Below are positions 1-20,725 of a stretch of DNA of 64,000 bases, piece after piece (the stretch's first letter is position 1; every line of letters starts with the position of its first letter). Source of the stretch: Onthophagus taurus (taxonomy: Eukaryota; Arthropoda; Insecta; Coleoptera; Scarabaeidae); NCBI RefSeq assembly GCF_036711975.1, contig NC_091976.1, positions 18,538,001 to 18,602,000 on the forward strand, read 5' to 3'. The notes under the pieces were generated by a model, which was not told where the DNA came from, searched no databases, and saw only the letters and a program-made list of their open reading frames with translations. The position numbers and the translations under genes were made by a program.

Positions 1-7
1 GTTTTAC

Positions 8-71
8 CCGAAAAAGCTTCGCAAGTAACTGCTAAAAAAATAGCGAAAACAACAGCTACAACAAAATTCAT
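8..71 (-). CDS. G1: first exon of a cluster-family secreted protein (cut by window edge)
   Basis: The exon reads from ATG at 71 to base 8 and is followed by a GT donor at 7-6. It encodes a signal peptide of 21 residues (MNFVVAVV...TCEAFS) with a hydrophobic core, ending in the CEAFSG-type junction seen in all its neighbours. The split glycine codon makes the intron phase 1, as in the other members. The remaining exons would lie left of base 1. The upstream region has the family promoter (TTTAAATA at 155-162, TGAGTCATGGTCGC motif at 231-248). The function is unknown; secretion is inferred from the signal peptide. Confidence 0.75.
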
Positions 72-154
72 TTTTATTTAAACAAAGTAGTTTTGTTATA
101 TAAAAACAATTTCTTTAATCGACTCGAAATGCTTTCAAAAGATAAAAGAAAGCC

Positions 155-248
155 TTTAAATACATACCACAAAAATGCGTAGCCTTAAGTTTTTCAATTT
201 TTCAAATATCTTTAAGATTCTTTAACAATCTGAGTCATGGTCGCTTTT
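155..248 (-). promoter_or_regulatory. G1 promoter: TATA box and ATGACTCA module
   Basis: On the minus strand a TATTTAAA box (162-155) lies about 90 bases upstream of the G1 ATG. AAAAGCGACCATGACTCA (248-231) lies about 160 bases upstream. The same pair is found upstream of G2 and G3 at similar distances. ATGACTCA resembles an AP-1/bZIP site; binding is inferred. Confidence 0.6.
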
Positions 249-435
249 ATTGTTGATTGCAGGAATGTTGCGAATGCAACATAATAAAGTTATAATAACT
301 TAAAGCTAGTTTTTAAAAATCATTGTCGAGAAAAAAATAAACAAATTCATAGAAAAAGTTTTATTAACATTATTTAATTTTACAAATGTAAAATTAATAA
401 TAATCAAATTTATTTATATATTTATCATCGAAATA

Positions 436-1025
436 TTATTGATGGCTTTTCTTAAAAACTTGATGTTTAACGTCATGTTTTCTATGATGTTTTTTGGTAT
501 CTTGATTATTAACTTCTTGCGGATTTTGTGTTATTTCTGGAGCAACAGTTGTGGTACTTGTAGAATTAGAGTTACAAGCGCATGTACAACCCAAAAATTG
601 GGTAAGATCATTCGATGAGCTTGAATCTACAAAACAAATCATTATTAAATCAAAACTACTTAAATCATACTACTTATACCTTCACCATCCTGAAGAGGTT
701 TTCTAACAAAATGTTTTTTATTATTAACATTGTGACTGTTCTTATGATGTGTTATACGTTTCGCATCAACAGGTTGTGCACAAAGTATTAAACAAGCTAA
801 TTCACATGCGCATTCTGGTACATTAGCTTGAGAAGATGAATCTTGAGGGGTTTCACTCGATGTGATTTCAGTTTCATCAGCTCTAACTTGACGGCGATGT
901 TTCTTGGGATGATGAACTTAAAATTTATTAAATTATTAAATTGAATCCTTAATGAGTTTATATTTACCATAAAATCCTTCGCAAACCACGATTAAATAAA
1001 CGACGAAAACAACGCAAAATTTCAT
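436..1025 (-). CDS. G2: secreted His- and Cys-rich protein, 161 aa, 3 exons
   Basis: Exons 1025-968, 916-680 and 626-436 join in phase 1 with GT-AG introns and give 161 residues. Order of parts: signal peptide (about residues 1-19, ending CEGFYG), a basic HHPKKHRRQ stretch, an acidic Ser/Thr segment, a Cys cluster ECACELACLILC, a His/Lys segment, an LGCTCACN Cys cluster, then a Thr-rich linker and a KKHHRKHD tail. It lacks the separate fourth exon of most neighbours; the tail is fused to exon 3. The start is the first ATG after the TATA box and begins the signal peptide. No known family is recognised. A secreted metal-binding or structural role is inference from the His and Cys content. Confidence 0.82.
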
Positions 1026-1120
1026 CTTGAATTGATTTATTATTGTTATTATTATTACGGTTATGTTGTTTATTATTAGTACGTTCAAATTAAACTAAAC
1101 TCATTAAACAAACCAAAGCC

Positions 1121-1201
1121 TTTAAATATGCCATAAATTGGAGCAGACAAGTTTTTAACATATTTTTATGATTCTTAAAGATTTGAGTCATGGTCGCTTT
1201 T
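1121..1201 (-). promoter_or_regulatory. G2 promoter: TATA box and ATGACTCA module
   Basis: TATTTAAA at 1128-1121 and AAAGCGACCATGACTCA at 1201-1184 on the coding strand, about 95 and 160 bases upstream of the ATG. The AAGAATC and AAAATAT words between them recur in other members. Confidence 0.62.
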
Positions 1202-1203
1202 GT

Positions 1204-4200
1204 TGTCATGTTATACAACTTTATGAAAGTAATTACTTTAACGGTGAGTCACTGCAGATTATTGAAATACTTGTGTTTTTATCATGTTTTAGTCATATTA
1301 GAAAAATTATGGATCAATCATCATTTTAATTCTATTTTATAACTTAGAAACAAGTATTTTCTACTTGTTTTGAAGAATTCTTCAAGTTCTAATTGTTTAT
1401 TGATTAGACATCGGATTTTATTAATAAGAAGTATGTGATGTTGAGATAGCGCCTCGGCCGCAAGACACCTCATTTCTTCAACTCTTGACAATAATACATC
1501 ATGGCCTTAGTAATACTTATACAAGTAAGTATTATTAGGTAGCGAAGATAAATTTGTACTGTTTGTGATAAACTGAAACCCACGTCATACAATCGATAAA
1601 TTAAATGATAAAACGTGATCGAGCTACTGCCTCGGCCGCAAGCGACCTTGACTTCACTCCATTCATGATTAAAGATAATACAAAGCGATCTTGTCACGGA
1701 AGTAACTATTATAGTATATCAAGATAGCGTGTATATGTTTGTATGACTACTCTTACTACTCTCTTTTCATTTTAGGACACATCCTAGCTATATGACAGCA
1801 ATGGATTGACATGAAATATATCACACTCTAGATATCTCATTAAATTCTTTCTTTGACAAGCACTTACGCTTTCTTTAATGATGATAAATACCGATTTTTA
1901 TGATATCTGAAACCCAAGCTATTGAAATAAGTCATAATATGGACTACATTGAAATGGAAAGATAATTGGCACAACATGATTTGAACGTAATTGAAAAAAA
2001 AGTTGTGTTCCAAACGTATGAAAAAATATCCTGAACTACTCTTTGAACTACTGAGAAGTAATGGATTAGCTGATAGTTTAAGTAGTCTGATCTATTACCA
2101 AAACAAGATTTGACTTGTTTCAATGCACGAGAAAGATGTCAAACCAAATATATGGCGAATTAATACACTAAAAAGGTCAATAAAAACCGAGCTCAACAAT
2201 TGAATAAAATAGTACCCATCAGTCGGTGCAACAACGAGGCACCAACCTGGTAGGGTAATGTTAAACGGAGCTGACTTCACCTTCAAATTATAGCAACAAC
2301 AGAGCAGCCTCGGAGCTACCTCGTTGTTGACCCAAACCTTTTATGGATGTGTTCAGAACATTTCGACCTCCTTCTAAAAGAGAAAATGTTTAAATAAAGA
2401 AAAATGGGAACGTAATTCAAGAAAATCTAAAAGAGTAAGAGGAGAAGAGTACATAAGTGTAAGAGGAAAAGTAGTCAAAGCTCGCGTAACTGAAAAAACC
2501 TACCAATGTAAACCACAACATTTTGACAAAGTTAACCCAGAAATTCGGGATGTTATCCTTACAAACTTTAATAGCAACGGCAATAAAAAAAGAACAGGAT
2601 AAGTATCTGTGTGGAATGGTAACATGTAACGAGATAAAACGTAAACGGAGTAAGACAAGTACTGGAAAACGTCGCAGTATATCTAACGTTTAGGTTGTAA
2701 GTACATATCTTTTTTTAAATACTCATCTTCTATTACTTATAGTAAGTGTTCTAAAATTTTAAATATTTTTCATTTCTTTATAAATACGAATCAGAACAAC
2801 AAAACTTAAAGTATGCAACAACACATTTTGTGAATTTCATGGAATATCCAGAAAGAGAGTACAAATTCTAGCTTCTCATATTGGATAACTAAGTTACTAC
2901 CTGCACCAATATTCATTGATCATTGTATACAATATGTCAAAAAAAGACGTCTAATAAGGTAAAGGAGAAATTTACTATGTCAAAACTCAAGTAAAAGGAT
3001 CCATCAATATGGTTCAATATCTGCTAGTTTGCTGATTCTTAAGGATTTCCCAATAGCCAGAATTAATGGACACATCCTTTTAGAACCTTCAGCAGCAGCA
3101 TATTCTACACCAGTGCCATTAAAATTTCAAAAATGAAACAAAATTTTTGATGCCTCCTGAACAATTTGTTAAAATGGAACTGACTCGTCGCTGCTGTAAG
3201 GTCTTCAATTTGGGTTTCTTCTGATTAAGCTGGTATATCAAACAGAGTACCGATGATTCGCGGGAAATAAATAAATTAATAAGTTGACACAGATGCACAG
3301 GTCCACTTCTAAGAATAGATGACACCAACTATTTTTCAAAGAGAACTGTCGTTGTGGGATGAGAAGCTGTGAAGAAAACGTAGAAAATTCTCACTTTTAG
3401 TGAACAATTGTGCTGCTCACCAAAATGTGTTACATTTGAAAAATATAAATGTTACAACCTATAAAAGGGAAGAGTAATTCGAAGTATCAAAGCACATTGC
3501 CCCGTCTATCTGAAAGCGTCGGATGCAGCGTTGCCAAAGTATTGTCTTTGATGGCTTCCATTCGATTGGTGGCACAAGCTTGGAATACAGAATACACGAA
3601 TTTATTGACTTAATTAACCATACCTATTTAAAAATTATATTTTATTATAACGTACACACATCCTGATCCCGTGATGATACGTTATACCCGGAGTCTACTG
3701 TATATCGTTTGGCAAATGTCGCTTTTTGAATTGGGACTGAATTTTCTTACCTATAGAGTGTGCAAACTTTAACACTTTATTATTACTAGTATGGCAAATG
3801 TTAACCGCTGTAGTTCTTCTTCAGTATTCTAAGACTGCGACTATTATTAGGATTATTCCTACTTTATCCATTATTCTGCTCTCTACTAGTGTTAACCCAC
3901 ATCTTATTATACATCCCTTATCAAATTTCTGTAATATCATTCCAGTTTTCTTTTGGTTTCTGATATTCCCATTACTTCTAATTTGTATTTGCTATAATAT
4001 CACCACTTCTTTCCCTATTAAAGTAGCAAAATAGTAAACAACACTTTATTTTTCGACTCTTATCAGGGAGTAGCAGGTTCAGGTAGGATTGCTATTTGGG
4101 TGACTCTAACATAAGTTAGGAATACCTCTTACTCTACTTCTTCATGAATCATGTTTCTTAGTATGAATGCCGCATCGCTATTTGGCAATGACAGAAATTG

Positions 4201-4674
4201 TTTCTTTTAAAATGAAACATTTCCACCAGATATTTCTAGTGTGATTTCAATCCAGGATCAAATTAAATACTTTTCGTTCCCATTATCTCCATTTTGGTTC
4301 ATCTTGAACGTTTAGTATTTACTTCTAGTGTTCCATGATCAACTCCTTCTATTTTTTTATAGAATTCTTGCATCAAGCATTGATTGATTAACTTTTGTAA
4401 TCGAATACATTCCATATATAGCTGATATCAGTATCACCCGTTCTTATGACTTGATGGATGTCGTTGTTTAAAACAATTTCTTGTTTTACTTTGCTCGAGT
4501 TAGCAAGGTTTTTCGTATATTAAAATAATCGTTAATAAGAAACAAGCAAGAAATGAACTAAGGGAAATAGTCATGTTTCAATGCATTTATTTATTTTTGG
4601 AAATTTTGTGTCAATAGTAAATAATAATATTTTCATTGAAGATTCAAAATTGTAAAGAACCTGTTAATTATAAC
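1204..4674. other. Intergenic stretch with two CTCGGCCGCAAG repeats, no gene seen
   Basis: No coding exon is recognised here. Two copies of a CCTCGGCCGCAAG core lie at about 1448 and 1632, the same core found in the tandem repeats at 36205-36520 and 47130-47310. The rest is AT-rich. The longest open frames have no protein-like composition. Confidence 0.5.
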
Positions 4675-4978
4675 AAACAATTATTTTAATTTTTCTTTCA
4701 ATGAACACCTTAACGATGTTACATTGTTTGAATTTTTAAAATTCTTTAGGATTATGGTGCATATGCCAAAAAATGGTCAAGGTTAATTTGTTGATATATA
4801 ATTTGTGTATTCATCTCTATTTATTGTTGATTGAGTAAGTTTAAATAAAGGAAAAGAAATGCAGTGATTGTGGCTAAGAAAATCTTTAATCTTTATTTTG
4901 AAGATTTAATACAATAAATCAATAACATTTCAATGATGTTTGATGTTTTTTTATCACGTAGATTCATTTAATAAATAA

Positions 4979-5613
4979 TTAAATAAAATAACTTGGTCCA
5001 GGATTTACCACTGTTGGTTCTTGTGAAATTGTTGATACATCTGGTTGTTTTGTTGTAGTTGATTTAGGACAGCGACGGCAAAAACAATAATGTCGAACAT
5101 ATCTTTTCTTTATATCTATAAAAAAATCATTTAAACAACTAGTTTATCACAAATTATTATTCAAAATTATTTATACATTTACCATTTCTAACAGCATGAT
5201 GATGTTTTTTATTAGCAGCATTGAAAATCTTCTTATTATGAAACATATGTCGTTTTCTCTGAGAAGTTTCTGTTGGAGCTGTGTAAATTGTTTCAGTCGT
5301 TTCAGTTATTTCAATTGGAACAGGTTCAATTCTACAAATAACTCCACAATGGCATAAAAGAACGGGTCCTGGTCCTAATATAGGTGGATAAATTTGTGAA
5401 GTTGTAGTTTCAGTGGGAGAATCAGAAGAAATTTCAGTCGATGTGGGGTCACCGTCACGAAGTTGATGGTGATGTTTCTTAATATGATGACGATGGGAGG
5501 CTTAAGTTTAAAAAATATGTTAGCTTGAAGTAAATATACAAACATTTTTGTATGTTACCTGATAAAGCTTCGCAGGCAACGCCTATAGAAATAATGAGGA
5601 AAACAAATTTCAT
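4979..5613 (-). CDS. G3: secreted His/Thr-rich protein, 169 aa, 3 exons
   Basis: Exons 5613-5559, 5500-5183 and 5115-4979 (all phase 1) give 169 residues. The signal peptide MKFVFLIISIGVACEALS (1-18) is followed by SHRHHIKKHHHQ, an acidic Ser/Thr stretch, a Pro-rich segment with a CHCGVIC Cys cluster, a Thr/Glu linker, a KKHHHAV His segment, then YCFCRRC and a Thr/Gln tail. In its duplicate G5 a fourth exon encoding a short His tail follows a normal GTAAGT donor. Here that donor reads GTTATT and the acceptor is lost, so translation runs on for a few codons to a TAA. G3 has therefore probably lost its last exon. No known family; secreted by inference. Confidence 0.78.
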
Positions 5614-5667
5614 TTTTATTTCTATAATAAATGCGAATACACTAGTTTCGCAAAATAAAACAACACC

Positions 5668-5752
5668 TTTAAATACATACTTCAACAATGATGGCTATGT
5701 GTTTTTTAAATATTTTCTAAATTCATAAATAAACCGAGTCATGGTCGCTTTT
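5668..5752 (-). promoter_or_regulatory. G3 promoter: TATA box and ATGACTC module
   Basis: TATTTAAA at 5675-5668 and AAAAGCGACCATGACTCG at 5752-5735 on the coding strand, about 60 and 130 bases upstream of the ATG. Confidence 0.6.
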
Positions 5753-6012
5753 GCTATGGAGTTATACAATGTTGTCATTTCCTAGAAAAACTTTCGTTAA
5801 TATGATATTAATGTTACATATATAAAACAATAAAGCTTTAATAATAATAAAGCTCAGCTTTTTTTAAAGTAATTAACAGAAAACTAATATTTATGCACAT
5901 TTTATTTATTCAACACTTTTCAATCAACTACAAATCATATAACAAATTTTAGAATTTCAAAAATTAATGATTTATTTAAGCTGAAACAATCGTGTTGTAA
6001 AGATGATTACAA

Positions 6013-6728
6013 TTAGTGATGATTTTTCTTCATATCATGATGTTTAACATGATGTGCTTTTACGTTATGGTGTTTTTTACCATCTGCATGTATAAAAAGA
6101 ATATTAAAAAATAAAATAGGAAAATATGTTAAAGTTACTTACGTCGGTTTTGAGGTGCTTCCGTGGTTACTGAACTTCCTTCACTTACAGTAGTTTCAGT
6201 GCTTTCAGTAGTTTCAGTGCTTTCAGTAGTTTCAGTGCTTTCAGTAGTTTCAGTACTTTCAGTAGTTACAGTACTTTCAGTAGTGTCCGGATTTTGTGTT
6301 GTAGTACTTGTAGTACCACTATTACATCGGCAAACATTACATAGATTTAAAAATGTACGAGTATCTTCCAATGAATTTAAATCTGCCAAGAAAAACTCGT
6401 TAAATACAATAATATTTATTAAAAAACAATAATTGTTTTTCATCATTTTCTTCCTCACCTTTTCTGACTGCATGATGGCGTTGACCACCAGAAATTGAAC
6501 ACACTGAGCACACAAAAACTCGACATAGAAATCCGCCAGGAATAACTCGTTTTGTATGTGAAACATCAAAAGATTCACTATGTTTTACTTGATGATGTTT
6601 CTTAGCATGATCATTTGAAGCTTAAATTAAGAGAAAAATTAAATACTTTTTAAAACATTGCTTTTTTATTTACCTGAAAATCCATCGCAAGCGATAATTA
6701 AAGTAATAGCGAACACCACCAGTTTCAT
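6013..6728 (-). CDS. G4: secreted His/Cys protein with Thr-Glu-Ser repeats, 175 aa, 4 exons
   Basis: Exons 6728-6674, 6620-6459, 6382-6143 and 6083-6013, all phase 1, give 175 residues. Parts in order: signal peptide MKLVVFAITLIIACDGFS; SNDHAKKHHQVKH; a Cys cluster LCRVFVCSVC; a basic RHHAVRK end; LCNVCRCN (CxxCxC); a mucin-like run of TTESTE repeats; and the tail HGKKHHNVKAHHVKHHD ending in NHH. The Thr/Ser repeats are likely O-glycosylated, and the His tail could bind Zn or Cu; both are inference. The gene is the duplicate partner of G6, which has one six-residue repeat fewer. Confidence 0.86.
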
Positions 6729-6805
6729 CTTATTTGGTTGAATTGGTTTTGTTACAGTTTTTTAAAAGAGTCGAACTGAATTGCTTTCATGAAAAAAACC
6801 AACGG

Positions 6806-6922
6806 CTTATATACCCAAGGAAATTTGAATAATATTTTTGAGGATTCTGGAATATTCAACAAGTTGATAACAATATACTAAAATTTATGTTGTTAGAAAG
6901 ATAAAGTCATGCTAAAAAAATG
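6806..6922 (-). promoter_or_regulatory. G4 promoter: TATATAAG box and distal AGCATGACT block
   Basis: TATATAAG at 6813-6806, about 80 bases upstream of the ATG. The block CATTTTTTTAGCATGACT at 6922-6905 is shared with G6 and, in altered form, with G7 (14915-14935) and G8 (19621-19640). Confidence 0.55.
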
Positions 6923-7620
6923 TGTATTAATTGCTTTTTCGAATGTTTTAAAAAGTAGTTCACTGAAAAAATCGTTAACCTTGAAGGAAAACTGTCATTA
7001 GAAATTTTCCTACGGTAAGAGTTGCAAATTGTCTTATTTGCTATCAGATCTACCAGAAAATAGTAGCTAGAGAAAAGTTTTGAAAACTGAAGACTAAATT
7101 TCAACAACAAATCTAGCTATCATTATACATACAACAGTACAGCCAATGATTAAAAAAAGAAAAAATTGACTACTGTATGACCTAAACATATTGAGCCAAT
7201 TTTAATGAATGTATGGAAAGAGTCGGCTTATTCGAAGAAATGATGGTTAAACTCAACCAACATTTAAAAGCTTTTCCGCTAATTAACTCGTAGGAGATTA
7301 TTCTTCTAGAAAGTTATAAATTATTTTGTCGGTAAAAACAAACTGAAAGAGATAAATGTAAAATTTCAATCGGAAATATACTTCTTATTCTTTCAGTTGC
7401 GTTACAGCACAGAACGAGCTTCAATTTCTACAACTCCTCGCACCCGCTCGCCAATTTCTTGCTCCAAGCAATTCCAAAATTATCTAAGCATCGCGTTCAT
7501 TACTTTTTTAGGAACCCTTCTTTCATCCACTCGTTATGTCCAGTCTACTGAAATCTTCGTATCTTAACAAATCTTACAATATCCAGGTCCTTGTATATCT
7601 CTCCCACTTCGTAGTTATAT
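6923..7620. other. Conserved upstream flank of G4, no gene seen
   Basis: Non-coding sequence that is closely repeated upstream of G6 (about 11523-11990). It contains no recognisable exon. Confidence 0.45.
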
Positions 7621-8935
7621 AATAATAAATAAATAAATAATAATTTATTGAGCCAAATTAGAAAAAACAAAATACAATAATAAGGAAAAGTACAATAATA
7701 TTAAACTTAAATTATAGCTCAAAGGGTGCAAGGGCAGAAAAGGCAAAACAATGCCACTGATTTTACTTGCCCTAATGAGAACAGCAGCAGAAAATAAAAT
7801 AAAAGTTAAACCAAATCAAAACTGAGCAGTATCAATGCTCCAATCGTCGCCTTTGGTTATTGCGCTAAAGATTTTCCTTAATACCCTCCATTCAAATACT
7901 GCTAACATTTAACTGCATTAAGTGCATATAGTGTTTTAGTTCACTTCATGCTCCTTTATCGTATTTTCTGTACGGTGTTATTGGTCTCATTTACTATGCT
8001 TCCCAGATAGGTAAAATATGGCACTATGTCAAAAATGTTATCGTTTCAAATCGTCCAGTTTTGTCCTAGCCTGTATGCCTTTATATGTAACGTTACACTG
8101 TGTGCATCCTCCTTAATCTCTTCATAGCACTTCTTCATTCCTTGTTTGGATCCATGGATATCATCTGCGTGCTGTTAATTGTATATCTTTGTACATATTG
8201 GTGCTATTCTGGTTTATTTGTAATTGCTTAGAGACCTTCTGTAGCACTACATTAAACAATATGGGAGCAAGTCCCATCACCTGGTCACTGCATCTGCCCT
8301 CCACTTTGACTATACCCTTCGAGTTGATCATCACCGTACGAGTCAGATTTACCAATTTAAAAGGAATTCCCATTTTCTGCATGGCTCTATATAGTGCTTC
8401 TCGATCCAAAGTGTTAGGCACTATTAAAATCTGATCTGAGGTGGATCTGCCACCTGTAAACCCATTCGAGTAAGTTCTCCTCGGCGTACGGGGTGATTTT
8501 GTACCGTAATGTATCTGTTATAATTTTATATGTGGTATCCTCTCTTAAATTATTTTTTATATATTGAACATATGAGGACAGTCCCTCAATCTGTAGGCAT
8601 CTTCTCAGTCTCCCACATTTTCACTAAAAGCGGATATATTAGCTCGTCACCTCCATGCTTCAGTAGCTCTGTTGGGATATATCTACCCCTGGTACCTAAT
8701 TACATTTTAGCCTCTTTATGCACTTATTTGGGGTTGTCTTTAAGGAGTCCCTCGAAATACTGCTTCGATTTATTCAGCACCTGATCCCTATTTACCAATA
8801 TCTCACCTTCCATGCTCCTACATATTGCATGCCTAGGCCTAGGTATGTGTTCCCAGTTTTCTTTATACATTTCTGGTTTCTTGTAGTAAACTTCTAGTAC
8901 TGTGCTTAGTTGGGTATGTATAATATAATATACTT
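7621..8935 (-). mobile_element. LINE (non-LTR retrotransposon) fossil, RT part, minus strand
   Basis: Frames read on the minus strand give reverse-transcriptase-like text. 8421-8161 has DREALYRAMQKMGIP, KLVNLTRTVM and a PILFNVVLQKVSKQL segment, typical of the thumb/palm region. About 8020-7960 reads FTYLGSIVNETNN, typical just after the RT domain. The element is in several frames and has no catalytic YADD block that I can see. A run of ATTT-like units at 7621-7650 could be its 3' tail. The clade is uncertain. A shorter copy of the same element lies in unit B. Confidence 0.7.
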
Positions 8936-9383
8936 ACCCTTGCAAAAATAAGTCTACATTATGTAGATGTGCAGATTGTATCACAGATATCAAGCCTAAA
9001 CGTTCCAGTAAATAGAAGGAATATAATTCCAGGTTTAATTTTCTGAGAGTGTGTATTTGCCTAATTTGTGCGTTCCTAATTTCGATCACATAACCTGCAT
9101 TTTGATATGAATTAAAATCATAATTCCTTTCTTCGTTATTAAACAATTATTTTAATTTTTCTTTCAATGAACACCTTAACGATGTTTCATTGTTAAAGTT
9201 TTTAAAATTCTTTAGAATTATGTGGCATACGCTAAAATGGTGAAGGTTCTTTTGATGATATATAATATGTGTACAGTGGTGTCATCTCTATTGTTGATTG
9301 AGTAAGCTTAAATGAAGGAAAAGAAAAACAATGATTGCGGCTGAGAAAAACTTTAATCTTTAACACAATAAATCAATAATAAT

Positions 9384-10096
9384 TCAATGATGTTTATGAT
9401 ATTTTTTATCACCTAAATTCATAAAATAAGTAATTAAAAAAATAGAATAACAAAATTAAGTAAAATAACTTACTTGGTCCAGAAGTTATCACTGTTGGTT
9501 CTTGTGAAATTGTTGATACATCTGGTTGTTCTGTTGTAGTTGATACAAGACACCGAAGGCAAAAACAAGGATGTGGAATATCTAATTTGTTTATATATAT
9601 AAAAAAATCATTTAAACACTAGTTTACCACAAATTATCATTTAAAATTGTTTATACCTTTACTATATCTAACAGCGTGATGTTTTTTATTAGGAGCATTA
9701 AAAATCTTCTTATTATGAAATATATGTCGTTTATTCTGAGAAGTTTCTGTTGGAATCGTATCACTTGCTTCAGTTGTTGTTTCAGTCGTTTCAGTTGTTT
9801 TAATTGAAACAGGTAAAAGTGGACAAAAAAACTCCACAATGGCATATAAGAGCGGGCCCGTGCCCAAAGTTAGGTGTAGAAATTTTTGGAATTATAGTTT
9901 CAGTGGGAGAATCAGAAGAAATTTCAGTCGATGTGGGGTCACCGTCACGAAGTTGATGGTGATCTTTTTTAATATGATGACGATGGGAGGCTTAAGTTTA
10001 AAAAATATGTTAGCTTGAAGTAAACATTTTTTTTATTTTACCTGAAAAAGCTTCGCAGACAACGCCTAAAGAAATAATGAGGAAAACAAATTTCAT
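9384..10096 (-). pseudogene. G5: frameshifted duplicate of G3
   Basis: Exons 10096-10042 (signal peptide), 9990-9657, 9581-9474 and 9412-9384 are recognisable and keep GT-AG sites in phase 1. Compared with G3, exon 2 has one extra base in the T-run after the CHCGV codons (about 9825). This ends the reading frame at a TAA shortly after. The sequence downstream of the shift still resembles G3 in the shifted frame, including KRHIFHNKKIFNAPNKKHH. Unlike G3, it keeps a fourth exon that would encode SDKKYHKHH. It is either a young pseudogene or carries a sequencing error in a homopolymer. Confidence 0.7.
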
Positions 10097-10150
10097 TTTT
10101 ATTTCTATAATAAATACGAATACACTAGTTTTGCAAAATAAAACAACGCA

Positions 10151-10234
10151 TTTAAATATATACTTCAACAATGATGGCTATGTGTTTTTTAAATATTTTC
10201 TAAATTCATAAATAATTCGATTCATGGTCGCTTG
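10151..10234 (-). promoter_or_regulatory. G5 promoter: TATA box and degenerate ATGAATCG module
   Basis: TATTTAAA at 10158-10151. The upstream motif reads ATGAATCG at about 10225-10218, one base off the ATGACTC core seen in G1 to G3. The AAGCGACC half next to it is kept. Confidence 0.5.
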
Positions 10235-10603
10235 TGTTGTGGAGTTATACAATGTTGTCAGTATACAGTTGCAATAACTTTATGGGAATAAGTAGAATGG
10301 CAATCACTTTCTAGAAAAACTTTCGTTAATATGATATTAATGTTACATATTTAAAACAATAAAGCTTTAATAATAATAAAGCTGAGATATTTTTTTAAAT
10401 AATTAATAAATTACTGATGATTTACTTCAACAACTTTAAGCAAAAGGTAATGATGTGTGAGATAGAAAGAAAAACTAATATTTATTCACATTTTATTTAT
10501 TCAACACTTTTAAATCAACTACAAATCATATAACAAAATCTAGAACTTCAAAAATTAATGATTTATTTAAGCTGAAACAATCGTGTTGTAAAGATGATTA
10601 AAA

Positions 10604-11289
10604 TCAGTGATGATTTTTCTTCATATCATGATGTGCTTTTACGTTATGATGTTTTTTACCATCTGCATGCATAAAAAGAATATTAAAAAATAAAATAGGA
10701 AAATATGTTAGAGTTACTTACGTCGGTTTTGAGGGGCTTCCGTGGTCACTGAACTTCCTTCACTTACAGTAGTTTCAGTGCTTTCAGTAGTTTCAGTGCT
10801 TTCAGTAGTTTCAGTACTTTCAGTAGTTACAGTACTTTCAGTAGTGTCCGGATTTTGTGATGTAGTACTTGTAGTACCACTATTACATCGGCAAACATTA
10901 CATAGGTTTAAAAATGTACGAGTATCTTCCAATGAATTTAAATCTGCCAACAAAAACTCGTTAAATACAATGATATTTATTAAAAAACAATAATTGTTTT
11001 TCATCATTTTCACCCTCACCATTTCTAACTGAATGATGGCGTTGACCACCAGAAGTTGAACACACTGGGCACACAAAAAATCGACATAGAAATCCGCCAG
11101 GAATAACTCGTTTTGTATGTGAAACATCAGAAGATTCACTATGTTTTACTTGATGATGTTTCTTGGCATGATCGTTTGAAGCTTAAATTAAGAGAAAAAT
11201 TAAATACTTTTTAAAATATTGCTTTTTTATTTACCTGAAAATCCATCGCAAGCGATAATTAAAGTAATAGCGAACACCACCAGTTTCAT
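10604..11289 (-). CDS. G6: secreted His/Cys protein with Thr-Glu-Ser repeats, 165 aa, 4 exons
   Basis: Exons 11289-11235, 11181-11020, 10943-10722 and 10662-10604 (phase 1 throughout) give 165 residues. The design is the same as G4: signal peptide MKLVVFAITLIIACDGFS, a KKHHQVKH stretch, LCRFFVCPVC, LCNVCRCN, TTESTE repeats, and a His tail ending KNHH. It differs from G4 by one 18-base Thr-Glu-Ser repeat fewer and by a 12-base deletion in the tail. The open frame is intact, so it is likely functional. The family and role are unknown. Confidence 0.85.
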
Positions 11290-11365
11290 CTTCTTTAGTT
11301 CAATTGGTTTTGTTATAGTTGTTTAAAATGTCGACCTGAATTGCCTTCATGAAAAAAACCAACGG

Positions 11366-11522
11366 CTTATATACTCAAGGAAATTTGAATAATATTTTTG
11401 AGGATTCTGGAATATTCAACAAGTTGATAACAAGTTTCTAACAATTTAGCAAATTGCGATTAATCATAACTATGTACTGAAATGTATGTTGTTAAAAAGA
11501 TAAAGTCATGCTAAAAAAATTT
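11366..11522 (-). promoter_or_regulatory. G6 promoter: TATATAAG box and AGCATGACT block
   Basis: TATATAAG at 11373-11366, with ATTTTTTTAGCATGACT at about 11520-11504. This is nearly identical to the G4 upstream region. Confidence 0.52.
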
Positions 11523-12039
11523 GTACCAATTGCTTTTTCGAATGTTTTAAAAAGTAGTTCACTGAAAAAATCGTTAACCTTGAAGGAAAACTGTCATTAG
11601 CAATTTTCCTACGGTAAGAGTTGCAAATTGTCTTATTTGTTATCAGATCTACCAGAAAACAGTAGCTAGAGAAAAGTTTTTAGCAGATGAAGTTTTGAAA
11701 ACTGATGAGTAAATTTCAACAACAAATTTAGCTAACATTATACATACAACAGTGCTTATAACCTAAACGTATTGATCCAATTTTAATGAATGTATGGAAA
11801 GAGTCGACTTATTTGAAGAAATGGTGGTTAAACTGAACTAGATAGTCATAAAAATCACAAATTATTGTTGGTTAAAACAAACTGAAAGAGATAAATGTAA
11901 AACTTCAATCAGAAATATACTTCTTCTTTCAGTAGCGTTACAGCACAGAACGAGCTTCAATTTCTACAACTCCTCGCACCCGCTCGCCTCTTTGTTATCT
12001 TATCATCGCGTTCGAGGTCTTAACCTTAGTTGGTTTGTG

Positions 12040-12667: not shown

Positions 12668-13993
12668 TTACATTCTGTAGGATTAGGAGTTTTAAGAGCA
12701 ACTATTTAGAGCAACGTGATTTTACTAATTATTGCATGAATACGATCTAATAACTGTATCATATAAGTTGTATTTGGATCATGGTCAACTTATTTGTTGA
12801 AGATTTTTTTGTCTGTCAGTCATTTAACAAGTAATTTAGTGATATTTATGCTATGCTTTCAACATACGATCTCTTGAAGTGTTGGGATAAAATAATAAGA
12901 TCATACCTCTTTAGCTATATTAAATGCACCAGCAGTTCTAAATTGTAGGTAACCAATTCTGCTAGACATTCTTTTCCAAAAGTGGCACTATCATCTACAT
13001 CTCGCACTTGATCTAGAGTGTATCCTTAATATTCAATAATTTTTCCAAATTTTATTAATTGTACTTTTGATCTACAACTTCTGCCAAAATTTCCTACCCG
13101 CAATATTAGTCCTAAGTGTTGTAGTAGTCCTATACATACATGAATTAGCGCCACACAAATCTGCATTCGAACTAAATCAGAAAGGAATAATCCTGAGTTA
13201 AATCAGAGAGAAAGAAGTCTGAACTAAACCAAAAAGAAAAATTCTCAAAACAGTCTAAAAAGACGCCAACAATATAGATAAGAAATAACCTAAACAAAAT
13301 CAGAAGGAAATATGCCGAAAGAAGTAACATTGAAAGGCAAAAGAAAGGACCCAATAAGTGATTAAGAAGAATGCATAAATTATTGTCAGTGCTTTACTGA
13401 TCAAATAAATTTCAACAAACCAAGAAGTAACGATTTTTGGAGTAGTCTTAACACTGCTTTCTAATGACATGAATCTTGTGGTTGCGAAGACAGTGTTGTA
13501 AGATTGACTTAGAATTGAATTTAGCTCATTGGAAATGGAAATAATCAACGAACAATGAAAAATTGTTTAAATAATTGATGCTCACACTCATTGGAATATA
13601 ATAAAATCATAATCGTTGGTTTTACGTTTCAAACTGAGGCACCATACGAGTCGCTAAAACATAGTTAGAAAAGAACTTAGTCACCTTAATAGCAGAGAAG
13701 TCTCGAAATCTTTGTATTCAACGATCCTCCTAAAATCAAATTGTTCGCAGGGGCAAATACCTTTATAACGAGTGCTTCTACAGAGTATCCCTGTTGGTTA
13801 TTGGAAAATTTTTCTCTTTGTTTTTCTCACCAAATAAGATATGTGATAGAAGATTTACGAGAAAAGACGTTAAATTATAGTTGGTAAAGTAATTAAAGAA
13901 AACGGAAATATTTATCCTCATTTTATTTATTCAAAACTTTTAAATTAATCACAATATTTGTAACCAATTTTCAGTTGGATAAGATCACTCCAA
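12668..13993. other. Intergenic stretch, no gene seen
   Basis: AT-rich sequence without a recognisable exon, RNA gene or transposon domain. The open frames at 13172-13548 are of low complexity and show no family. Confidence 0.4.
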
Positions 13994-14697
13994 TCAGTGA
14001 TGATTTTTCTTGCTCTCATGATGTTTACCATGATGTGCTTTAACATTGTGGTGTTTCTTAGCATCTGCATTCATGAAAATCGAAAATTTAATTTTAAAAA
14101 TAATACAAGAAAATATAAAACGTTACTTACGTCGTGCTTGAGGTTCGTCGGTGTTTTGTGAGGTTTCTGGCTCACCAGTAGTTTCTGGAGTTTCTGGAGT
14201 TGTTGGGGTTTCTGTATTTTCTTGATTTTCTGTACATTCTGTTGTTGTGTTACAATTGCACATTTTACACATATTTTTATCGCTAATATCTTCAGTTATA
14301 TTTACATCTACAAGAAAAAAATATTTAGATAAAATAAGAAGTGTTTACGTTTAAAACGAAAATATTTCTTGTTAATGATTTTTACCTTCACCATCTCTAA
14401 CAGAATGATGTTTTTTATGATGCACATTATGACTCTTCTTGTGAGAGTTATGGCGTTTTGCATCAGGAGTTTTCGGACAATTTGCACAAATCTCATCACA
14501 TAAGCTTCCCTCCCGTTTTGATGATGCGACATGAGAAGTTTTATCATGCTTTACTTGATTATGTTTTTTAGCATGATGATTGTTTGAAGCTTAAATTAGA
14601 ATAAGATAGATTTATTGTTTTATTGAATATTGTTTTCATTACCTGAAAAAGCTTCACAAGCTACTATTAAAGTAATAGCAAAGACAATCAGCTTCAT
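13994..14697 (-). CDS. G7: secreted His/Cys protein, 168 aa, 4 exons
   Basis: Exons 14697-14643, 14589-14386, 14307-14131 and 14064-13994, all phase 1, give 168 residues. Parts: signal peptide MKLIVFAITLIVACEAFS; SNNHHAKKHNQVKHD; a Cys cluster LCDEICANC (Cx3CxxC); a KRHNSHKKSHN-type His/Lys segment ending SVRDGE; MCKMCNCN (CxxCxC); a Thr/Pro/Glu linker; and a tail HAKKHHNVKAHHGKHHES ending NHH. The single KR and the basic His runs could be processing sites releasing His-rich peptides (inference). It best represents the full family design together with G8. Confidence 0.87.
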
Positions 14698-14776
14698 CTT
14701 GTTTGGTTGAATTAGTTATCTTGTAGTTCTTACAAAAGGCTCAAATTGAACTGCTTTCACAAAACAAACCCACCAC

Positions 14777-14935
14777 TTTAAATACTAATACGATAATTTA
14801 AAAAACGATTTTTAAAATATTTTCGAAACATTCTTAAGTTGCAATGTTATGTAAATGATAACTATAATTATGTTTAGTCATTGTGAGGAATTTAAGGTTG
14901 TTTTAAGGAACTTTTAGTCACGCTGAAAAAATTGT
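14777..14935 (-). promoter_or_regulatory. G7 promoter: TATA box and distal block
   Basis: TATTTAAA at 14784-14777, about 85 bases upstream of the ATG. The block CAATTTTTTCAGCGTGACTA at 14935-14915 aligns with the AGCATGACT blocks of G4 and G6. Confidence 0.5.
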
Positions 14936-15179
14936 ATATTTAATGAGCTTTTTAGAACCTTTTAAAAAAATTGTTTTACGCAAAATAACAGTTAATGTTA
15001 TGCAAACTATAATTATTTTTATTAGTTATAAATGACTCATAGAGAAAGTGAGAATCAACAAAATACTATTTTATAATGATTTTATACTTGTTTCGATTTC
15101 ATTGAGTTGATTAATTGACTTAATTTTTTTTTGTACTGAGAAGAGCTAATTCAAAACAAAATTGGTCGGAAAAATTTAG

Positions 15180-15640
15180 TACATGAAGATATCAGACAAT
15201 CCTAATATCAAAAATGAACAATTAAATCTAGCTATGATCTGGATGGCCAATTCTGGTCACATGATTGGAAAATTATAGGATGAGGAAATAACTCTTATTA
15301 ATTGAAGTACAAAAATAGTATGATTATTACTTTACTAGCAGCACATAAGAATTGTATGATGATACATCGAAACGATAATCTACACCAAACAATAACACCT
15401 TGTGGATGCATTTTTACTCCAATTGCAACAATTTGGACGATTTACGAATCCATCAAGATGAAAATGAGTTCCATCTCTCCAAATGATTTTGATTTTGTCT
15501 CATTTGATGTTCCAAAATTCTTCTTGATGATTGCTAGTTTTAAACTTATATTCTGTAACTTTAATTTAACAGTCGAGTCAGTGACTTTGCCTAGGTATAT
15601 TAGGTTTTTGAAATATCTTGACCAAGCTCTCTTTTTTAAA
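15180..15640 (-). mobile_element. Tc1/mariner-type transposase fossil, minus strand
   Basis: The minus strand around 15500-15410 reads WRDGTHFHLDGFVNRPNC, matching the DEAHFHL...VNKQNCRYW block of Tc1/mariner DDE transposases that also occurs intact at about 37490-37560 in the mariner at 36523. The frames before and after it are broken by stops. No terminal repeats were found. Confidence 0.5.
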
Positions 15641-15689
15641 CTTCATCCAATCACTACATGTCATTGCACCTACATATCATTAACGACAA

Positions 15690-17660
15690 GGTAAACTTGC
15701 TAAATCATTTGTTGATCTCAGCTATTGACATATATGCCCACCGTGTGAGAGTAACTTCTGCCAAGGATCCCTGTCCGTAGCTTACTGATAATGTTAGATT
15801 GGTGCAAGACTTAAGAGATGAGTCTCTGTCAAAATTTAAACAACCAAAAAATCAGTCTGACTGGATCTACTATAAAGAATGAAGAAATCTTGTAAATACC
15901 GCTATTAAGTGTGAAAAACGTGCTTACATTACTCATACGATACAAAATTCTGTTAACCCGTGGAAAGTGTTGCGAAAAAATAATTTATTGCAATGTAAGG
16001 TTCATTCTTGGAAGCTCAATGCTATGGCCACTGTAGGGTTGATAATTTGATTAATGGCTTTGGTAAGCAAAGTAAAAAATATTTGGCCCAGGTGTTTTCT
16101 CATTTAGGTTGGTGTCCGAGAGTGATATTTTAGCTGAATTACGTAATATAAGATCAAATGCTGTTGTCCTGTAATCTTACCTCATATAACAAATATTATT
16201 AATACTTGTCAATTAGAAGGTGTTTTCCCTTCAATGTGGAAACAGTCCATTGTGATACCGGTACCGAAGGTATCAAGTCCAAACGAATACTCATGCCTGA
16301 GACCCATAAGCATTTTGTGTTCCTTATGAAAAGTATTGGAAAAGGTAGTTAACAGACAATGGACGGAGTTTCTGAAGGCTGAGCGCATTGTTCCAGTGAA
16401 TCAGTCTGGTTTCAGGGAAGGGCATAGCTGTGAAACTGCTCTGAACAATATAGTGGATGATATTGTTACTGCAACTAACTCCAATAGATTGACTCTTCTG
16501 GGGATGTTGGATTTCTCCAGACCATTCGATACTCTAAACCAAGATTTGTTAATATCAATTCTTGACCATACCGGGCTTGATTCCGTCTCATTAGCTTTTT
16601 TCAAAAATTACCTTAAAGGCAGGATTCAATCAGTCAGTATTGATCAGGTGAAGTCGAGTGCCTTGGAGATAAAGTCTGGGGTAACGCAGGGATCGATTCT
16701 CGGCCCTACACTATTTAAAACACTATTTAAAACACGATAAATTTCAACAGCTTCGTTAATTTCTGTAGCGTCCACTACTATGCTGATGATACTCAGATTT
16801 ATCTGTCCTTTTCTGAAGGCCACTTTGATGAAAGCTTCAATAAGTTCAAGCGTGACTTACAGGCATTATCGACGGGGTTCGGTTGTATTGCTTAAAGATA
16901 AACACTAATAAGACCTAGATCATTCCGTTTGGGCCCCGAAGTTAAAAAAAAAATTTATTAATGGGTTTTATCACCTGTCGATTGGAGATACTCCTATTCC
17001 ATTGAGTAGTCTGTCAAAAACCTCGGACTGGTGGATGAGGCGTTGCGCTTTAGATTGCTCGAGCTTATGGCTGGTTATAATTGATTTATACTAATCGTTA
17101 TATTCTCGACTGGCACACAAAAAAACTTTTATGCGACTCTCTGGTATTGTTACACTTTAATTACTGTCACAGCATATACTGGGCTTTTTTGGATTCCAGA
17201 CATCAGGGAAAAATTCAAAAGCTTCAAACCTCGTGCATCCATTTAATTTTCGGAAATATGATCATGTGTTTTTTGGTTTTAAGCAGTTACAGAACATGAA
17301 ATCTCGCAGATACATCCACAAGGCCTGCTTGTATTATAGGGTCATCACTGAAGGTACCCCTCTATACCTGCACGATAGGATTAAATTCAAAACGGACGTA
17401 CATAATGTTAATATGCGCTTCAGGGGTACACTAAGACCTCCTTCCCACCGGACAGAATTTTTTAAACGGTGTTTTTCTTATCAGATATACACTACATAAA
17501 ATAATTTACCTCGGCACCTGATTGGACTGCCCCTGAACCGATTTAAAAGAGCATTGAAGTGTTGGGTTATAGAAAAGAATTAAATGGTTTGAACTTGTAT
17601 GCTGAGGAAATTCATTCCTAACTCGTTATCAGTTATCAATAAAGACTTAGTTTCACGAGG
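15690..17660 (+). mobile_element. LINE fossil, CR1/Jockey-superfamily-like, plus strand
   Basis: 16336-16740 encodes RT text: NQSGFREGHSCETALNNIVDDI, then LDFSRPFDTLNQDLLISIL, YLKGRIQSVSI and SGVTQGSILGPTLF. This is the order of RT motifs in CR1/Jockey-type LINEs; the expected KAFD is replaced by RPFD. Upstream (15780-16000) is the PWLTDN-like linker in broken frames, and downstream (17081-17499) is C-terminal text ending RPPSHRTEFFKRCF. Several stops and frameshifts make it dead. Confidence 0.8.
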
Positions 17661-18738
17661 CAAGAAACAAGTTTTAGAAGCAAATCTATTCAGCAGTCCT
17701 AGTTTCGACACCAATAGAGCTTTACCATCAAAGTAGTATTGTCCGGAGCATCAACTGTAATTCAATCATGATTGAGGTTGACACTAATCAATTAGCTCTG
17801 ATTGTAAAAATGTAGAAAAAATCTTGGGCACTTCTTCTCCAAATCCTGATACAAGACAGTTAAACGTTCTAACCGACTTACAGTTGGAAGACTGCGGTTT
17901 TTTCCGAATTTAAAAAATATTTACTAACGAAATGTATATTTTATTACAATTACTGTAAATTTATGATGATTGATTAATGGTGTAGAAATTTTAGAACTTA
18001 AAATGTTCCACAGAAACAGAAGTTTTGGAAACACTGATATAAACATTATTAAGAGTTATTTGGCGAGGATTGCCAATTAACAATTAATTCTTAACTACAT
18101 TTATGTGAGATCAATAAGGATACTAGTCAAAATTAAGAACCAATGTCAATTCATATTGTGCAACAAAGAAAAACATAGAAGAATGCATGCAGAAATCATG
18201 GATCGAATATTCCATTACTTCCAATCTTTTAGATATTTAGACAACAACATTTAGATAAGATAATTTGCATTTGGAACAGAGATCTGGAATATACAAGATC
18301 AAATATAAGATTGGTTTGTAAATTGTCTAAAATCTTTCATGTGTAAACTTAAAATTGTTGCTGCTCTTCAATCACAATTTGAATTCCATTTGAATGCATC
18401 TCGATTACGTTTGATGAAACCAAGAATTGAAATAAATACACTATATTAATCATCAGCTATTACTCTATGCTCTGAAACCTATCAGTTATAAAAAGTAAAC
18501 TCATAGAAGAACTCAAAGCAAGCTATTAATTGATGGAAACCAATTATACGCTTATCTTAAATATAAATTTATAGATAGATAGTGAAAGTATTGGAAAAAA
18601 GTATTTAGAAAAAAGCTAAGAACATCATGACGTGTAAAGCTAACACATAAAAATTGTATGAAATAATATAATATAATAATTTATATATATTTTATTTATT
18701 ATTATTCAGCTGGAAAGATCATATAAATAAAATTATAA
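17661..18738. other. Intergenic stretch, no gene seen
   Basis: AT-rich sequence. A possible LINE-like FRYLDNN fragment near 18200-18260 is too short to call. Nothing else is recognised. Confidence 0.35.
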
Positions 18739-19399
18739 TCAATGATGATTTTTCTTGTTAACATGATGTTTACCATGATGTGCTTTTGCATTGTGGTGTA
18801 TCTTAGCATCTGCATCTATAAAATAATTTATTTTAAAAATAAAATAAGGAAATATACAAGGTAACTTACGTCGTGCTTGCTGTCCTTGAGTATTTTGTTG
18901 CTCTCCTTGATTTTCGATAGATCCTGGAATTGTTGATACGTCTGGATTTTCTGTACTTTCCGTTATTGCGTTACATTTGCAATCATTACACAAAGTAGTT
19001 ATATCAGGAGTATTTTCATTTACATTTATATCTACAACAACATAAAGTAATCATATTTGATACGAAAAAAGTTCTTGTTAATCATTTTTACCTTCACCAT
19101 CTCTAACAGAACGATGTTTTTTATTATGACTCTTCTTGTGAGAATTATGCCGTTTTGCGTTAGGAGTTTCTATTTTCTGACAAAGTAAGCAAATTTTATC
19201 GCAAATGGGTTCTGTCCGTTTTGAAGATGCAACATGAGGAGTTTCACCATGATTAAGTTGGTGACGGTTTTTAGTATGGCTATTTGTAGCTTAAATTAAA
19301 ATAAGATACTATATTTATTTTTTATTAAATATTGTTTTAGTTACCTGAGAAAGCTTCACACGCTACTATTAAAGAAATAGCAAAAATAATTAGTTTCAT
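18739..19399 (-). CDS. G8: secreted His/Cys protein, 161 aa, 4 exons
   Basis: Exons 19399-19345, 19289-19092, 19031-18870 and 18809-18739, all phase 1, give 161 residues. Signal peptide MKLIIFAISLIVACEAFS, then TNSHTKNRHQLNH, ICDKICLLC (Cx3CxxC), an AKRHNSHKKSHNKKHR segment ending SVRDGE, LCNDCKCN (CxxCxC), an Asn/Gln/Glu/Ser linker instead of the Thr-rich one, and the His tail HAKIHHNAKAHHGKHH ending NHH. It is closest to G7. The role is unknown. Confidence 0.86.
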
Positions 19400-19479
19400 C
19401 TTGTTTGGGTGAGTTGGTTTTCTCGTAGTTTGGTTTAAAAAGCTTGAATTGAACTGCTTTCATTAAACAAACACATGTG

Positions 19480-19640
19480 TTTAAATACTCAACGATAATT
19501 TAAACAAACGACTTTTGAAATATTTTGGAAAATTCTTATGTATTTTGAGTCATAGAGTTTTTGTTGCTAAGTTATGCAATGTTGTCTAAATAATAGTTGC
19601 AGTAATGTTTGAGGAAATTAGAGTCATGGTAAAAAAATTG
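19480..19640 (-). promoter_or_regulatory. G8 promoter: TATA box, ATGACTCA and distal block
   Basis: TATTTAAA at 19487-19480, ATGACTCA at 19553-19546 and a second block CAATTTTTTTACCATGACTC at 19640-19621. G8 carries both motif classes that are split among the other members. Confidence 0.58.
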
Positions 19641-20018
19641 TATCAATAATGAGTTTTTAGAATCTTTTAAAAAATTGCTTATTACAAAACAATTATAATT
19701 TAGCCAACAATTATTTTCATGAATTACAAATGACTCTAAGGCAGAAAAGTTGTTCATATATTTCGGTACAGATTTCTAAGAAATTTTTGATTGACGTTGT
19801 AAATATTATTTTGGATAACATTTTAATTTACAATGATTTACAAATCCCATAAAGATAAGAATAAAAATATTTTTATAACATGTAATTTAATTTATTGATA
19901 AGGAATTTTTTTCCAGGCTATTTTTTTAAATATTTCTAAACCTCTATTATACAATTCTTATCAACGTTTTGTAAGTAATTAAGTTAAAATCATTGCATGA
20001 CAGCAACAAAAACAATTA

Positions 20019-20083
20019 TGACTCAGAATGTTTAGGAATCCTTAAAATATTTGTTCCTTTAATTTTAGTCGTATGTACTTAAA
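20019..20083 (+). promoter_or_regulatory. G9 promoter: ATGACTCA module on the plus strand
   Basis: ATGACTCAGAATG at 20018-20030 lies about 150 bases upstream of the G9 ATG, followed by GGAATCCTTAAAATATTT, which resembles the AGAATC..AAAATATT spacing of G4 and G8. A weaker TACTTAAA lies at 20076-20083. Confidence 0.55.
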
Positions 20084-20175
20084 GACGTTAACTTGCTTAA
20101 AGTAGCTAGTTAATTTCCAAGTTTTAAAGCAAGTATTATTACAAGACACAATCTAATAAAGAAAATCACACCAAG

Positions 20176-20725
20176 ATGAAAGTTTGTGTCATTTTTGTTA
20201 TTGCTTTAATCATAACTTGTGAAGCTTTATCAGGTAAATTAAATAATACTTTAATTTATTTTTGATTTTTACCTAATAGTTCTTATAAATGAAAAGTTTC
20301 TCGTCAACATACCAAGAAATATCACAATCAAGTTAGAGATGGTGGAAATGAAACAACAATTGATGAATCAACATGTAAATTAATTTGTGAACAAATTTGC
20401 CTTAATAAGAAATCTGGCGAAAAACATCATAATAGAAAACATCGTTCTGTTCGAGATAGTACTAGTGGTAATAATTTATAAAAAAAATTATTTCTTGGTT
20501 ATTTCATCAACTTCTCCTTATAGATTCGATGGATGTATGTGCTATGTGCAAATGTGGTACTCTAACTCCTGTTTTATCATATCAAACCGGAGAACCCCAA
20601 AATCAAAGTGCGTAACTTTTTTTGGTAGTTTTATTTATTAATATTTTTTTAAATATATTTTAGGTGGCAAAAAGAGGCATAACGTACGAGCACATCATGT
20701 TTCAAAGAAGACTCTCCACCAATAA
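20176..20725 (+). CDS. G9: secreted His/Cys protein, 124 aa, 4 exons, opposite strand
   Basis: Exons 20176-20233, 20297-20467, 20524-20607 and 20664-20725, phase 1 throughout, give 124 residues. It is the only plus-strand member and forms the right end of the cluster. Signal peptide MKVCVIFVIALIITCEALS; SRQHTKKYHNQVRDG; TCKLICEQIC (Cx3Cx3C); EKHHNRKHRSVRD; VCAMCKC (CxxCxC); a short linker without Thr repeats; tail KKRHNVRAHHVSKKTLHQ. The linker and tail are the shortest in the family, so it may be an early or reduced form. The third donor is GTGCGT. Function unknown. Confidence 0.84.

What the first reader, a model, noticed from the sequence alone, without database searches (positions are those of the whole stretch)
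1..20725. A tandem family of secreted His- and Cys-rich proteins that matches no family I know
Nine related genes share a signal peptide ending C(E/D)(A/G)(F/L)SG-like, a His/Lys block, a Cys cluster near Cx3CxxC, a second cluster CxxCxC, a low-complexity Thr/Glu/Pro or Asn/Gln linker and a tail such as HHNVKAHHGKHH. The Cys pattern and the signal peptide are conserved while the linker varies freely, which suggests selection on the Cys and His parts. Such proteins could bind metals, form an adhesive or cuticle-like material, or release His-rich antimicrobial peptides. The last three are inference only.
Basis: partly seen in the sequence, partly recalled or inferred. Interest (0 to 1): 0.8.

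Follow-up and report, generated by a model that had tools for sequence, protein, structure and literature searches.

The report
Secreted histidine-rich tandem gene family
A probable beetle carries a small cluster of related genes for secreted proteins rich in histidine, lysine and cysteine that matched no described family in the libraries searched; they look like real, selected genes, but what they do (antimicrobial peptide precursor, cross-linked secretion or metal binder) is not yet shown.

Summary
Nine related loci lie in tandem (window -595 to 20725; eight on the minus strand, G9 on the plus strand). They share a signal peptide, His/Lys blocks, two Cys clusters (usually three Cys each), a variable Thr/Glu-rich linker and a His-rich tail; every modelled intron is in phase 1. 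G5 is a pseudogene and G3 has lost its tail. A partial third copy of the G3+G4 unit lies 0.5 Mb away; four protein searches of the 290.8-Mb genome found no other member. A promoter pattern written from five of these genes matches nowhere else. dN/dS is 0.24-0.54 in six of seven pairs and 1.18 in the seventh. No Pfam match reaches its cut-off in nine proteins; PDB gives none. AlphaFold2 gives no confident fold for exon 2. New: the motif KKHHx(V/L)(R/K) recurs within the proteins, and the middle block is bounded by basic sites. I favour a precursor of histatin-like cationic peptides (0.38), with a cross-linked mucin-like secretion as close rival (0.3). The organism is probably a polyphagan beetle (recalled marker). 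Function is inference throughout.

The parts
1..71 (-). G1, exon 1 (71-8, signal peptide MNFVVAVVFAIFLAVTCEAFS) and start of intron 1; exons 2-4 lie left of the window (-53 to -595, in L002); 164 aa
436..1025 (-). G2, exons 1025-968, 916-680, 626-436; 161 aa; tail fused into exon 3
4979..5613 (-). G3, exons 5613-5559, 5500-5183, 5115-4979; 169 aa; tail exon lost
   Evidence: comparison with G10
6013..6728 (-). G4, exons 6728-6674, 6620-6459, 6382-6143, 6083-6013; 175 aa
9400..10096 (-). G5, pseudogene of the G3 type (frameshift in exon 2; exon 3 acceptor AG to AT); low end approximate, no spliced model made
10604..11289 (-). G6, exons 11289-11235, 11181-11020, 10943-10722, 10662-10604; 165 aa
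13994..14697 (-). G7, exons 14697-14643, 14589-14386, 14307-14131, 14064-13994; 168 aa
18739..19399 (-). G8, exons 19399-19345, 19289-19092, 19031-18870, 18815-18739; 163 aa
20176..20725 (+). G9, exons 20176-20233, 20297-20467, 20524-20607, 20664-20725; 124 aa; divergent to G8
206..237 (-). promoter pattern match upstream of G1
1160..1190 (-). promoter pattern match upstream of G2
5710..5741 (-). promoter pattern match upstream of G3
19520..19552 (-). promoter pattern match upstream of G8
20019..20050 (+). promoter pattern match upstream of G9
6184..6284 (-). 9/18-bp minisatellite that codes the Thr/Glu linker of G4
10762..10845 (-). the same minisatellite in G6, shorter
4675..7460 (.). duplication unit G3+G4, repeated at 9141-11996 as G5+G6 (81.6% over 2997 aligned columns)

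Best explanation
A tandem family of secreted proteins, found only at two sites of one chromosome of this genome and probably of a polyphagan beetle, that I read as precursors of several cationic His/Lys-rich peptides. Shown by sequence: N-terminal signal-peptide-like exon; His/Lys blocks with the motif KKHHx(V/L)(R/K); Arg or Lys-Arg before the middle block in most copies and (V/L)R at its end; two Cys clusters; an acidic or Thr/Glu linker; a promoter block common to several copies; duplication, decay and purifying selection in most pairs. Inferred: cleavage at the basic sites frees histatin-like peptides from the acidic spacers; the Cys clusters form disulphides; the peptides bind anionic microbial surfaces and Zn or Cu through His, so that the family acts in epithelial or glandular defence.
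For: Real genes. Motif KKHHx(V/L)(R/K) or close forms: 1 to 3 matches in each of 9 proteins against 0.004-0.033 in residue shuffles (p 0.024 in G8, at most 0.0004 in the other 8; pattern chosen after seeing these sequences). Sites: (K/Q)R before H or I at the start of the middle block in 8 of 9, strict KR in 6 of 9; (V/L)R at its end in 9 of 9 (read from the sequences; KR positions). Constraint: omega of His/Lys/Arg/Cys positions 0.19-0.31 in the 4 of 7 pairs where it could be computed, against 0.19, 0.54, 0.73 and 1.45 for Thr/Glu/Ser/Pro/Asn/Gln positions in the same pairs. G7/G8: tail exon 90.1% and signal exon 87.3% identical, introns 76.7-81.1%. Promoter pattern: 5 of 5 genome matches are this family. 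No confident fold: AlphaFold2 of G7 exon 2, 7-row alignment, pLDDT 59.4, pTM 0.15. Precedent: Cys-containing His-rich plant defensins; four of four expressed bound metal, two of four were antifungal (PMC7557933, abstract).
Against: No expression, peptide or activity data. Net charge (K+R minus D+E) of the mature protein is only -1 to +9. In G4 and G6 the stretch between the two sites is five residues, so little would be released. RxxR occurs in 4 of 9 proteins and the furin-type Rx(K/R)R in 0 of 9. Only G7 has the motif in all three blocks; the third match of G3 lies outside them. Exon 2, which holds two of the blocks, is 79.7% identical in G7/G8, no more than the introns; in G4/G6 exons (94.4-100%) and introns (94.7-98.1%) do not differ. 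The promoter pattern fails in G4, G6, G7, G10 and the pseudogene G5. The G3/G10 pair shows no constraint. His content and Thr-rich linker fit a cross-linked secretion equally well.
Confidence: 0.38

Rival explanations
1. A structural secretion (glue, cocoon, egg coat or a cuticle layer): mucin-like O-glycosylated linker, Cys disulphides and His residues cross-linked by quinones or by metal.
For: Thr/Glu/Ser linker coded by a minisatellite in G4 and G6; Thr 8-17% and His 8.5-14% of the mature protein; sub-threshold Pfam matches to New_glue (G6 18.3 bits, G1 10.6, cut-off 31) and to the silk protein SSP160 (G4 11.9, cut-off 25); His takes part in sclerotization in the beetle Tenebrio molitor according to PMC8062583 (passages).
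Against: Those Pfam matches are far below cut-off and lie mainly in low-complexity sequence. The proteins are short; Tyr is absent in 5 of 9 and 2 to 5 per protein in the other 4. No chitin-binding family is listed at E up to 1 for 9 proteins.
Confidence: 0.3
2. A secreted metal-handling protein (Zn/Cu/Ni binding, storage or withholding from microbes) that works uncleaved.
For: His clusters such as HHNVKAHHGKHH; tail exon of G7/G8 90.1% identical; low omega at His/Lys/Arg/Cys positions.
Against: No folded metal site predicted (exon 2 only); the tail is lost in G3; Lys-rich blocks are not expected of a metal site (inference).
Confidence: 0.15
3. Seminal fluid or other rapidly evolving reproductive protein.
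For: Small, secreted, birth-and-death cluster; G3/G10 dN/dS 1.18; exons 2+3 of G3/G5 differ more than introns plus upstream (13.3% against 7.0%, p 0.006).
Against: That excess vanishes when the 3' flank is counted as non-coding too (13.3% against 10.8%, p 0.27), and G3/G10 (p 0.39) and G5/G10 (p 0.13) do not show it even without the flank. Six of seven pairs have dN/dS of 0.24-0.54.
Confidence: 0.12
4. Effector of the bicycle kind injected into a plant.
For: Secreted, Cys motifs, all introns in the same phase, partly fast evolution.
Against: Published classifier coefficients give -7.2 to -16.5 for 8 of 8 genes scored; no CYC motif in 9 of 9; three or four exons, where characterized bicycle genes have at least five.
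Confidence: 0.03

Closest known systems
Histatins (human salivary His-rich antifungal peptides)
   Same: Short, cationic His/Lys-rich stretches without a fixed fold (PMC2853521 passage names histatin as histidine-rich and that group as unstructured; the rest recalled)
   Different: No Cys clusters and no Thr/Glu linker in histatins (recalled); no homology claimed, none tested
Tenecin 3 / holotricin 3 (antifungal peptides of beetles)
   Same: Beetle peptides with many His (sequences and descriptions in passages of PMC5715947)
   Different: Those are Gly-rich and the printed sequences hold no Cys; BLASTP of G7 with tenecin 3 gives no alignment
Histidine-rich plant defensins
   Same: Cys plus His-rich, metal binding, some antifungal (PMC7557933, abstract)
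   Different: Eight-Cys defensin fold; no sequence comparison was made here
Bicycle genes of aphids
   Same: Putatively secreted, Cys motifs, almost all internal exons in one phase, fast-evolving (PMC9168663, passages)
   Different: Many small exons and CYC motifs; both tested here and not met
His-rich RR-2 cuticular proteins of moth scales
   Same: Secreted His-rich proteins (PMC8062583, passages)
   Different: They belong to the RR-2 cuticular group; no chitin-binding Pfam match here

Membership tests
Bicycle genes | CYC motifs | tested here: not met
   0 of 9 proteins hold C-Y-C; the one count in G3 is CFC
Bicycle genes | Gene-structure classifier | tested here: not met
   strongly negative, -7.2 to -16.5, in 8 of 8 genes scored with coefficients from PMC9168663, taking 'mean exon length' as that of internal exons; G3 and G5 not scored
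Tenecin 3 / holotricin 3 | Sequence similarity; Gly-rich, Cys-free | tested here: not met
   no BLASTP alignment of G7 with tenecin 3 at E up to 100 (holotricin 3 not compared); 2 to 7 Gly and 4 to 7 Cys per mature protein in 9 proteins
New glue proteins (PF21827) | Pfam curated score | tested here: not met
   G6 18.3 and G1 10.6 bits against 31; no match at E up to 1 in the other 7 of 9 proteins
RR cuticular proteins | Chitin-binding RR consensus (Pfam) | tested here: not met
   not among Pfam matches at E up to 1 for 9 proteins
Antimicrobial His-rich peptide precursor (functional class) | Signal peptide and cationic His-rich blocks | tested here: met
   sequences; signal peptide judged by eye, no predictor was run
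Antimicrobial His-rich peptide precursor (functional class) | Proteolytic release at basic sites | not testable with these tools
   sites present ((K/Q)R before H/I in 8 of 9, read; no Rx(K/R)R in 9 of 9); cleavage not shown
Antimicrobial His-rich peptide precursor (functional class) | Antimicrobial activity or immune induction | not testable with these tools
   no RNA-seq or protein on hand

The most novel reading that the evidence does not exclude
A beetle lineage evolved its own multi-peptide precursor: one gene yields up to three histatin-like, metal-binding His/Lys peptides (KKHHxVR blocks) cut from acidic, Cys-bridged and mucin-like spacers, from an array with a common promoter block. 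It would be a family of defence or gland peptides not described in the sources searched.
Probability: 0.28. Interest if true: 0.6.

Novelty: new variant of a known kind. Interest (0 to 1): 0.42.

Why it matters
Taxon-restricted secreted families are common but mostly unexplained. This one has a clear anatomy (KKHHxVR blocks, two Cys clusters, a minisatellite-coded linker), a promoter block of its own and graded copies from intact to decayed, so an RNA-seq atlas and a peptide assay would decide its role. If the precursor reading holds, it adds a convergent case to histatins and His-rich plant defensins, with metal-assisted activity that can be tested directly.

Tried and rejected
Pfam, NCBIfam and PDB gave no match that I accept. 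In Pfam none of the matches at E up to 1 reaches its cut-off in nine proteins. NCBIfam gave scattered weak matches, best E 0.0067 to NuoI, cut-offs not printed (8 proteins). PDB gave none. GH48 and telomerase RBD searches meant to place the organism gave nothing and their controls were silent too, so they say nothing. An exact 26-base pattern for the tail gave 0 matches. Weak protein matches outside C11 were dropped before counting: C6 (E 0.010), C1 (E 2.28 and 0.78) and C2 (E 6.4). Their DNA was read afterwards in three frames (L012 and L028 both strands, L030 and L045 one strand) and shows none of the Cys clusters or His blocks. The bicycle idea was tested and dropped. Nine paper searches listed no title or abstract start that describes this family; most subscription papers are not in that library.

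A first reading that exons of the G3 branch evolve faster than non-coding DNA was withdrawn: it held only for G3/G5 with the 3' flank left out. The shuffle test of KKHHx(V/L)(R/K) and the promoter pattern were both built from these same genes, so they show concentration here, not an independent prediction. Splitting omega by residue type uses the residue of one member of each pair and is rough. Gene conversion between copies was not tested. The exon 2 donor of G10 has a second possible site; the G3-type site was used.
Full report
What was checked. The window lies at C11:18538001-18602000 of an unnamed 290.8-Mb genome in 33 contigs. Translated searches with exon peptides over the window, reading of the DNA and a signal-peptide/donor pattern over 104 kb (40 kb left of the window plus the window) give nine loci; the pattern finds those nine and no other. 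Eight are on the minus strand and G9 on the plus strand. Spliced models of eight of them (G9 corrected) have three or four exons, GT-AG introns and every intron in phase 1. G1 runs off the left edge. G5 is a pseudogene by a frameshift and a lost acceptor and was not modelled. G3 has lost its tail exon.

Whole genome. With G7, G1, G2 and G9 proteins as queries the only further family site is C11:18039769-18041285, 0.5 Mb away and inverted. It holds one open copy, G10, and a G4/G6-like fragment with a Cys-to-Ser change and a stop. It is a third copy of the G3+G4 unit (82.8% to G3+G4, 82.7% to G5+G6), which is also duplicated in the window as G5+G6 (81.6%). Weak matches on C6, C1 and C2 were read and are not this family. 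These searches score only the best candidates exon by exon, so distant members cannot be excluded.

Organism. A near-complete mitochondrial copy sits in contig C1. Its tRNA order is, from memory, the ancestral insect one, and its tRNA-Ser(AGN) reads TCT; from memory, that anticodon is a mark of polyphagan beetles. These are recalled rules applied to a nuclear copy, so 'probably a beetle' is as far as I go.

Anatomy. After the signal peptide comes block A, then Cys cluster 1, middle block B, a spacer, Cys cluster 2, a Thr/Glu/Ser/Asn linker and tail block C. KKHHx(V/L)(R/K) or close forms occur one to three times per protein in 9 proteins, against means of 0.004-0.033 in shuffles (pattern chosen afterwards); only G7 has it in all three blocks. 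Block B follows (K/Q)R in 8 of 9 proteins (strict KR in 6) and ends in (V/L)R in 9 of 9, but Rx(K/R)R occurs in none. Seven of nine proteins have their Cys split as three plus three or, in G7, three plus four; G2 has four plus three and G1 two plus two. The linker of G4 and G6 is coded by a 9/18-bp minisatellite, which offers a reason for its free variation. AlphaFold2 gives no confident fold for exon 2 of G7 (7-row alignment, pLDDT 59.4); the full spliced protein was not folded.

Selection. NG86 omega for seven pairs: G4/G6 0.24, G7/G8 0.54, G7/G4 0.44, G8/G4 0.45, G1/G10 0.42, G1/G3 0.50, G3/G10 1.18. Five were tested: p 0.007 (G4/G6), 0.008 (G7/G8), 0.0004 (G7/G4), 0.00004 (G1/G10) and 0.72 (G3/G10). 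Signal-peptide omega is 0.09-0.11 in G7/G8, G7/G4 and G8/G4, 0.65-0.74 in G1/G3 and G1/G10, and not computable in the other two. In G7/G8 the tail exon (90.1%) and signal exon (87.3%) are more alike than the introns (76.7-81.1%), exon 2 is equal to them (79.7%) and the linker exon less (68.6%); in G4/G6 exons and introns do not differ. In the G3 branch, exons 2+3 against introns plus upstream: G3/G5 13.3% and 7.0% (p 0.006), G3/G10 10.3% and 8.4% (p 0.39), G5/G10 12.0% and 8.6% (p 0.13). With the 3' flank added to the non-coding part none of the three differs (p 0.14-0.27). So this branch shows no constraint, and I do not claim positive selection.

Regulation. Upstream regions of ten copies align in a block; TATTTAAA follows in 7 of 10 (not in G4, G6 and G9, which have variants). 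The pattern TGACTC-N5/6-YWWADGAAT-N6/8-ATAT has five matches in the genome, starting 128-166 bp before the ATG of G1, G2, G3, G8 and G9, and none elsewhere; the control pattern has one. The pattern was written from these five, and it fails in G4, G5, G6, G7 and G10.

Comparison. No Pfam match at E up to 1 reached its cut-off in 9 proteins, NCBIfam gave scattered weak matches (8 proteins) and PDB none. Bicycle genes were tested and rejected; tenecin 3 gave no alignment. Histatins and His-rich plant defensins are functional analogies only.

Judgement. That these are real, secreted, mostly selected genes of a family private to these two sites in this genome is well supported (about 0.9). Their function is not. 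I put the precursor-of-cationic-peptides reading at about 0.38, a cross-linked secretion at 0.3, an uncleaved metal protein at 0.15 and a reproductive protein at 0.12.

Noticed in passing
G000:C1:21443200-21459400 (L049-L051): Near-complete mitochondrial genome copy inside a nuclear contig; a reverse-strand ORF that looks by eye like a LINE reverse transcriptase splits ND2, COX3 is broken between frames and a tandem array lies to the left: a nuclear copy or a misassembly.
   Followed up: partly
G000:C11:18524027-18536771 (left of the window): Several alpha-amylase family (PF00128; maltase-like by inference) exons on the minus strand; the nearest match ends about 0.6 kb from the end of G1. The promoter pattern has no match there.
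   Followed up: no
window 19399-20176: G8 and G9 are divergent with 776 bp between their start codons, each with its own promoter pattern match.
   Followed up: partly
window 43079-44932: PPP4R2 exon, followed by an acidic ORF with EETNL-like repeats that score over the Pfam Pentapeptide cut-off; that both belong to one gene is assumed.
   Followed up: no
window 49294-50077: Two stretches of an AMP-binding enzyme on the minus strand.
   Followed up: no
window 16330-16740: Reverse transcriptase (RVT_1) fragment between G7 and G8.
   Followed up: no
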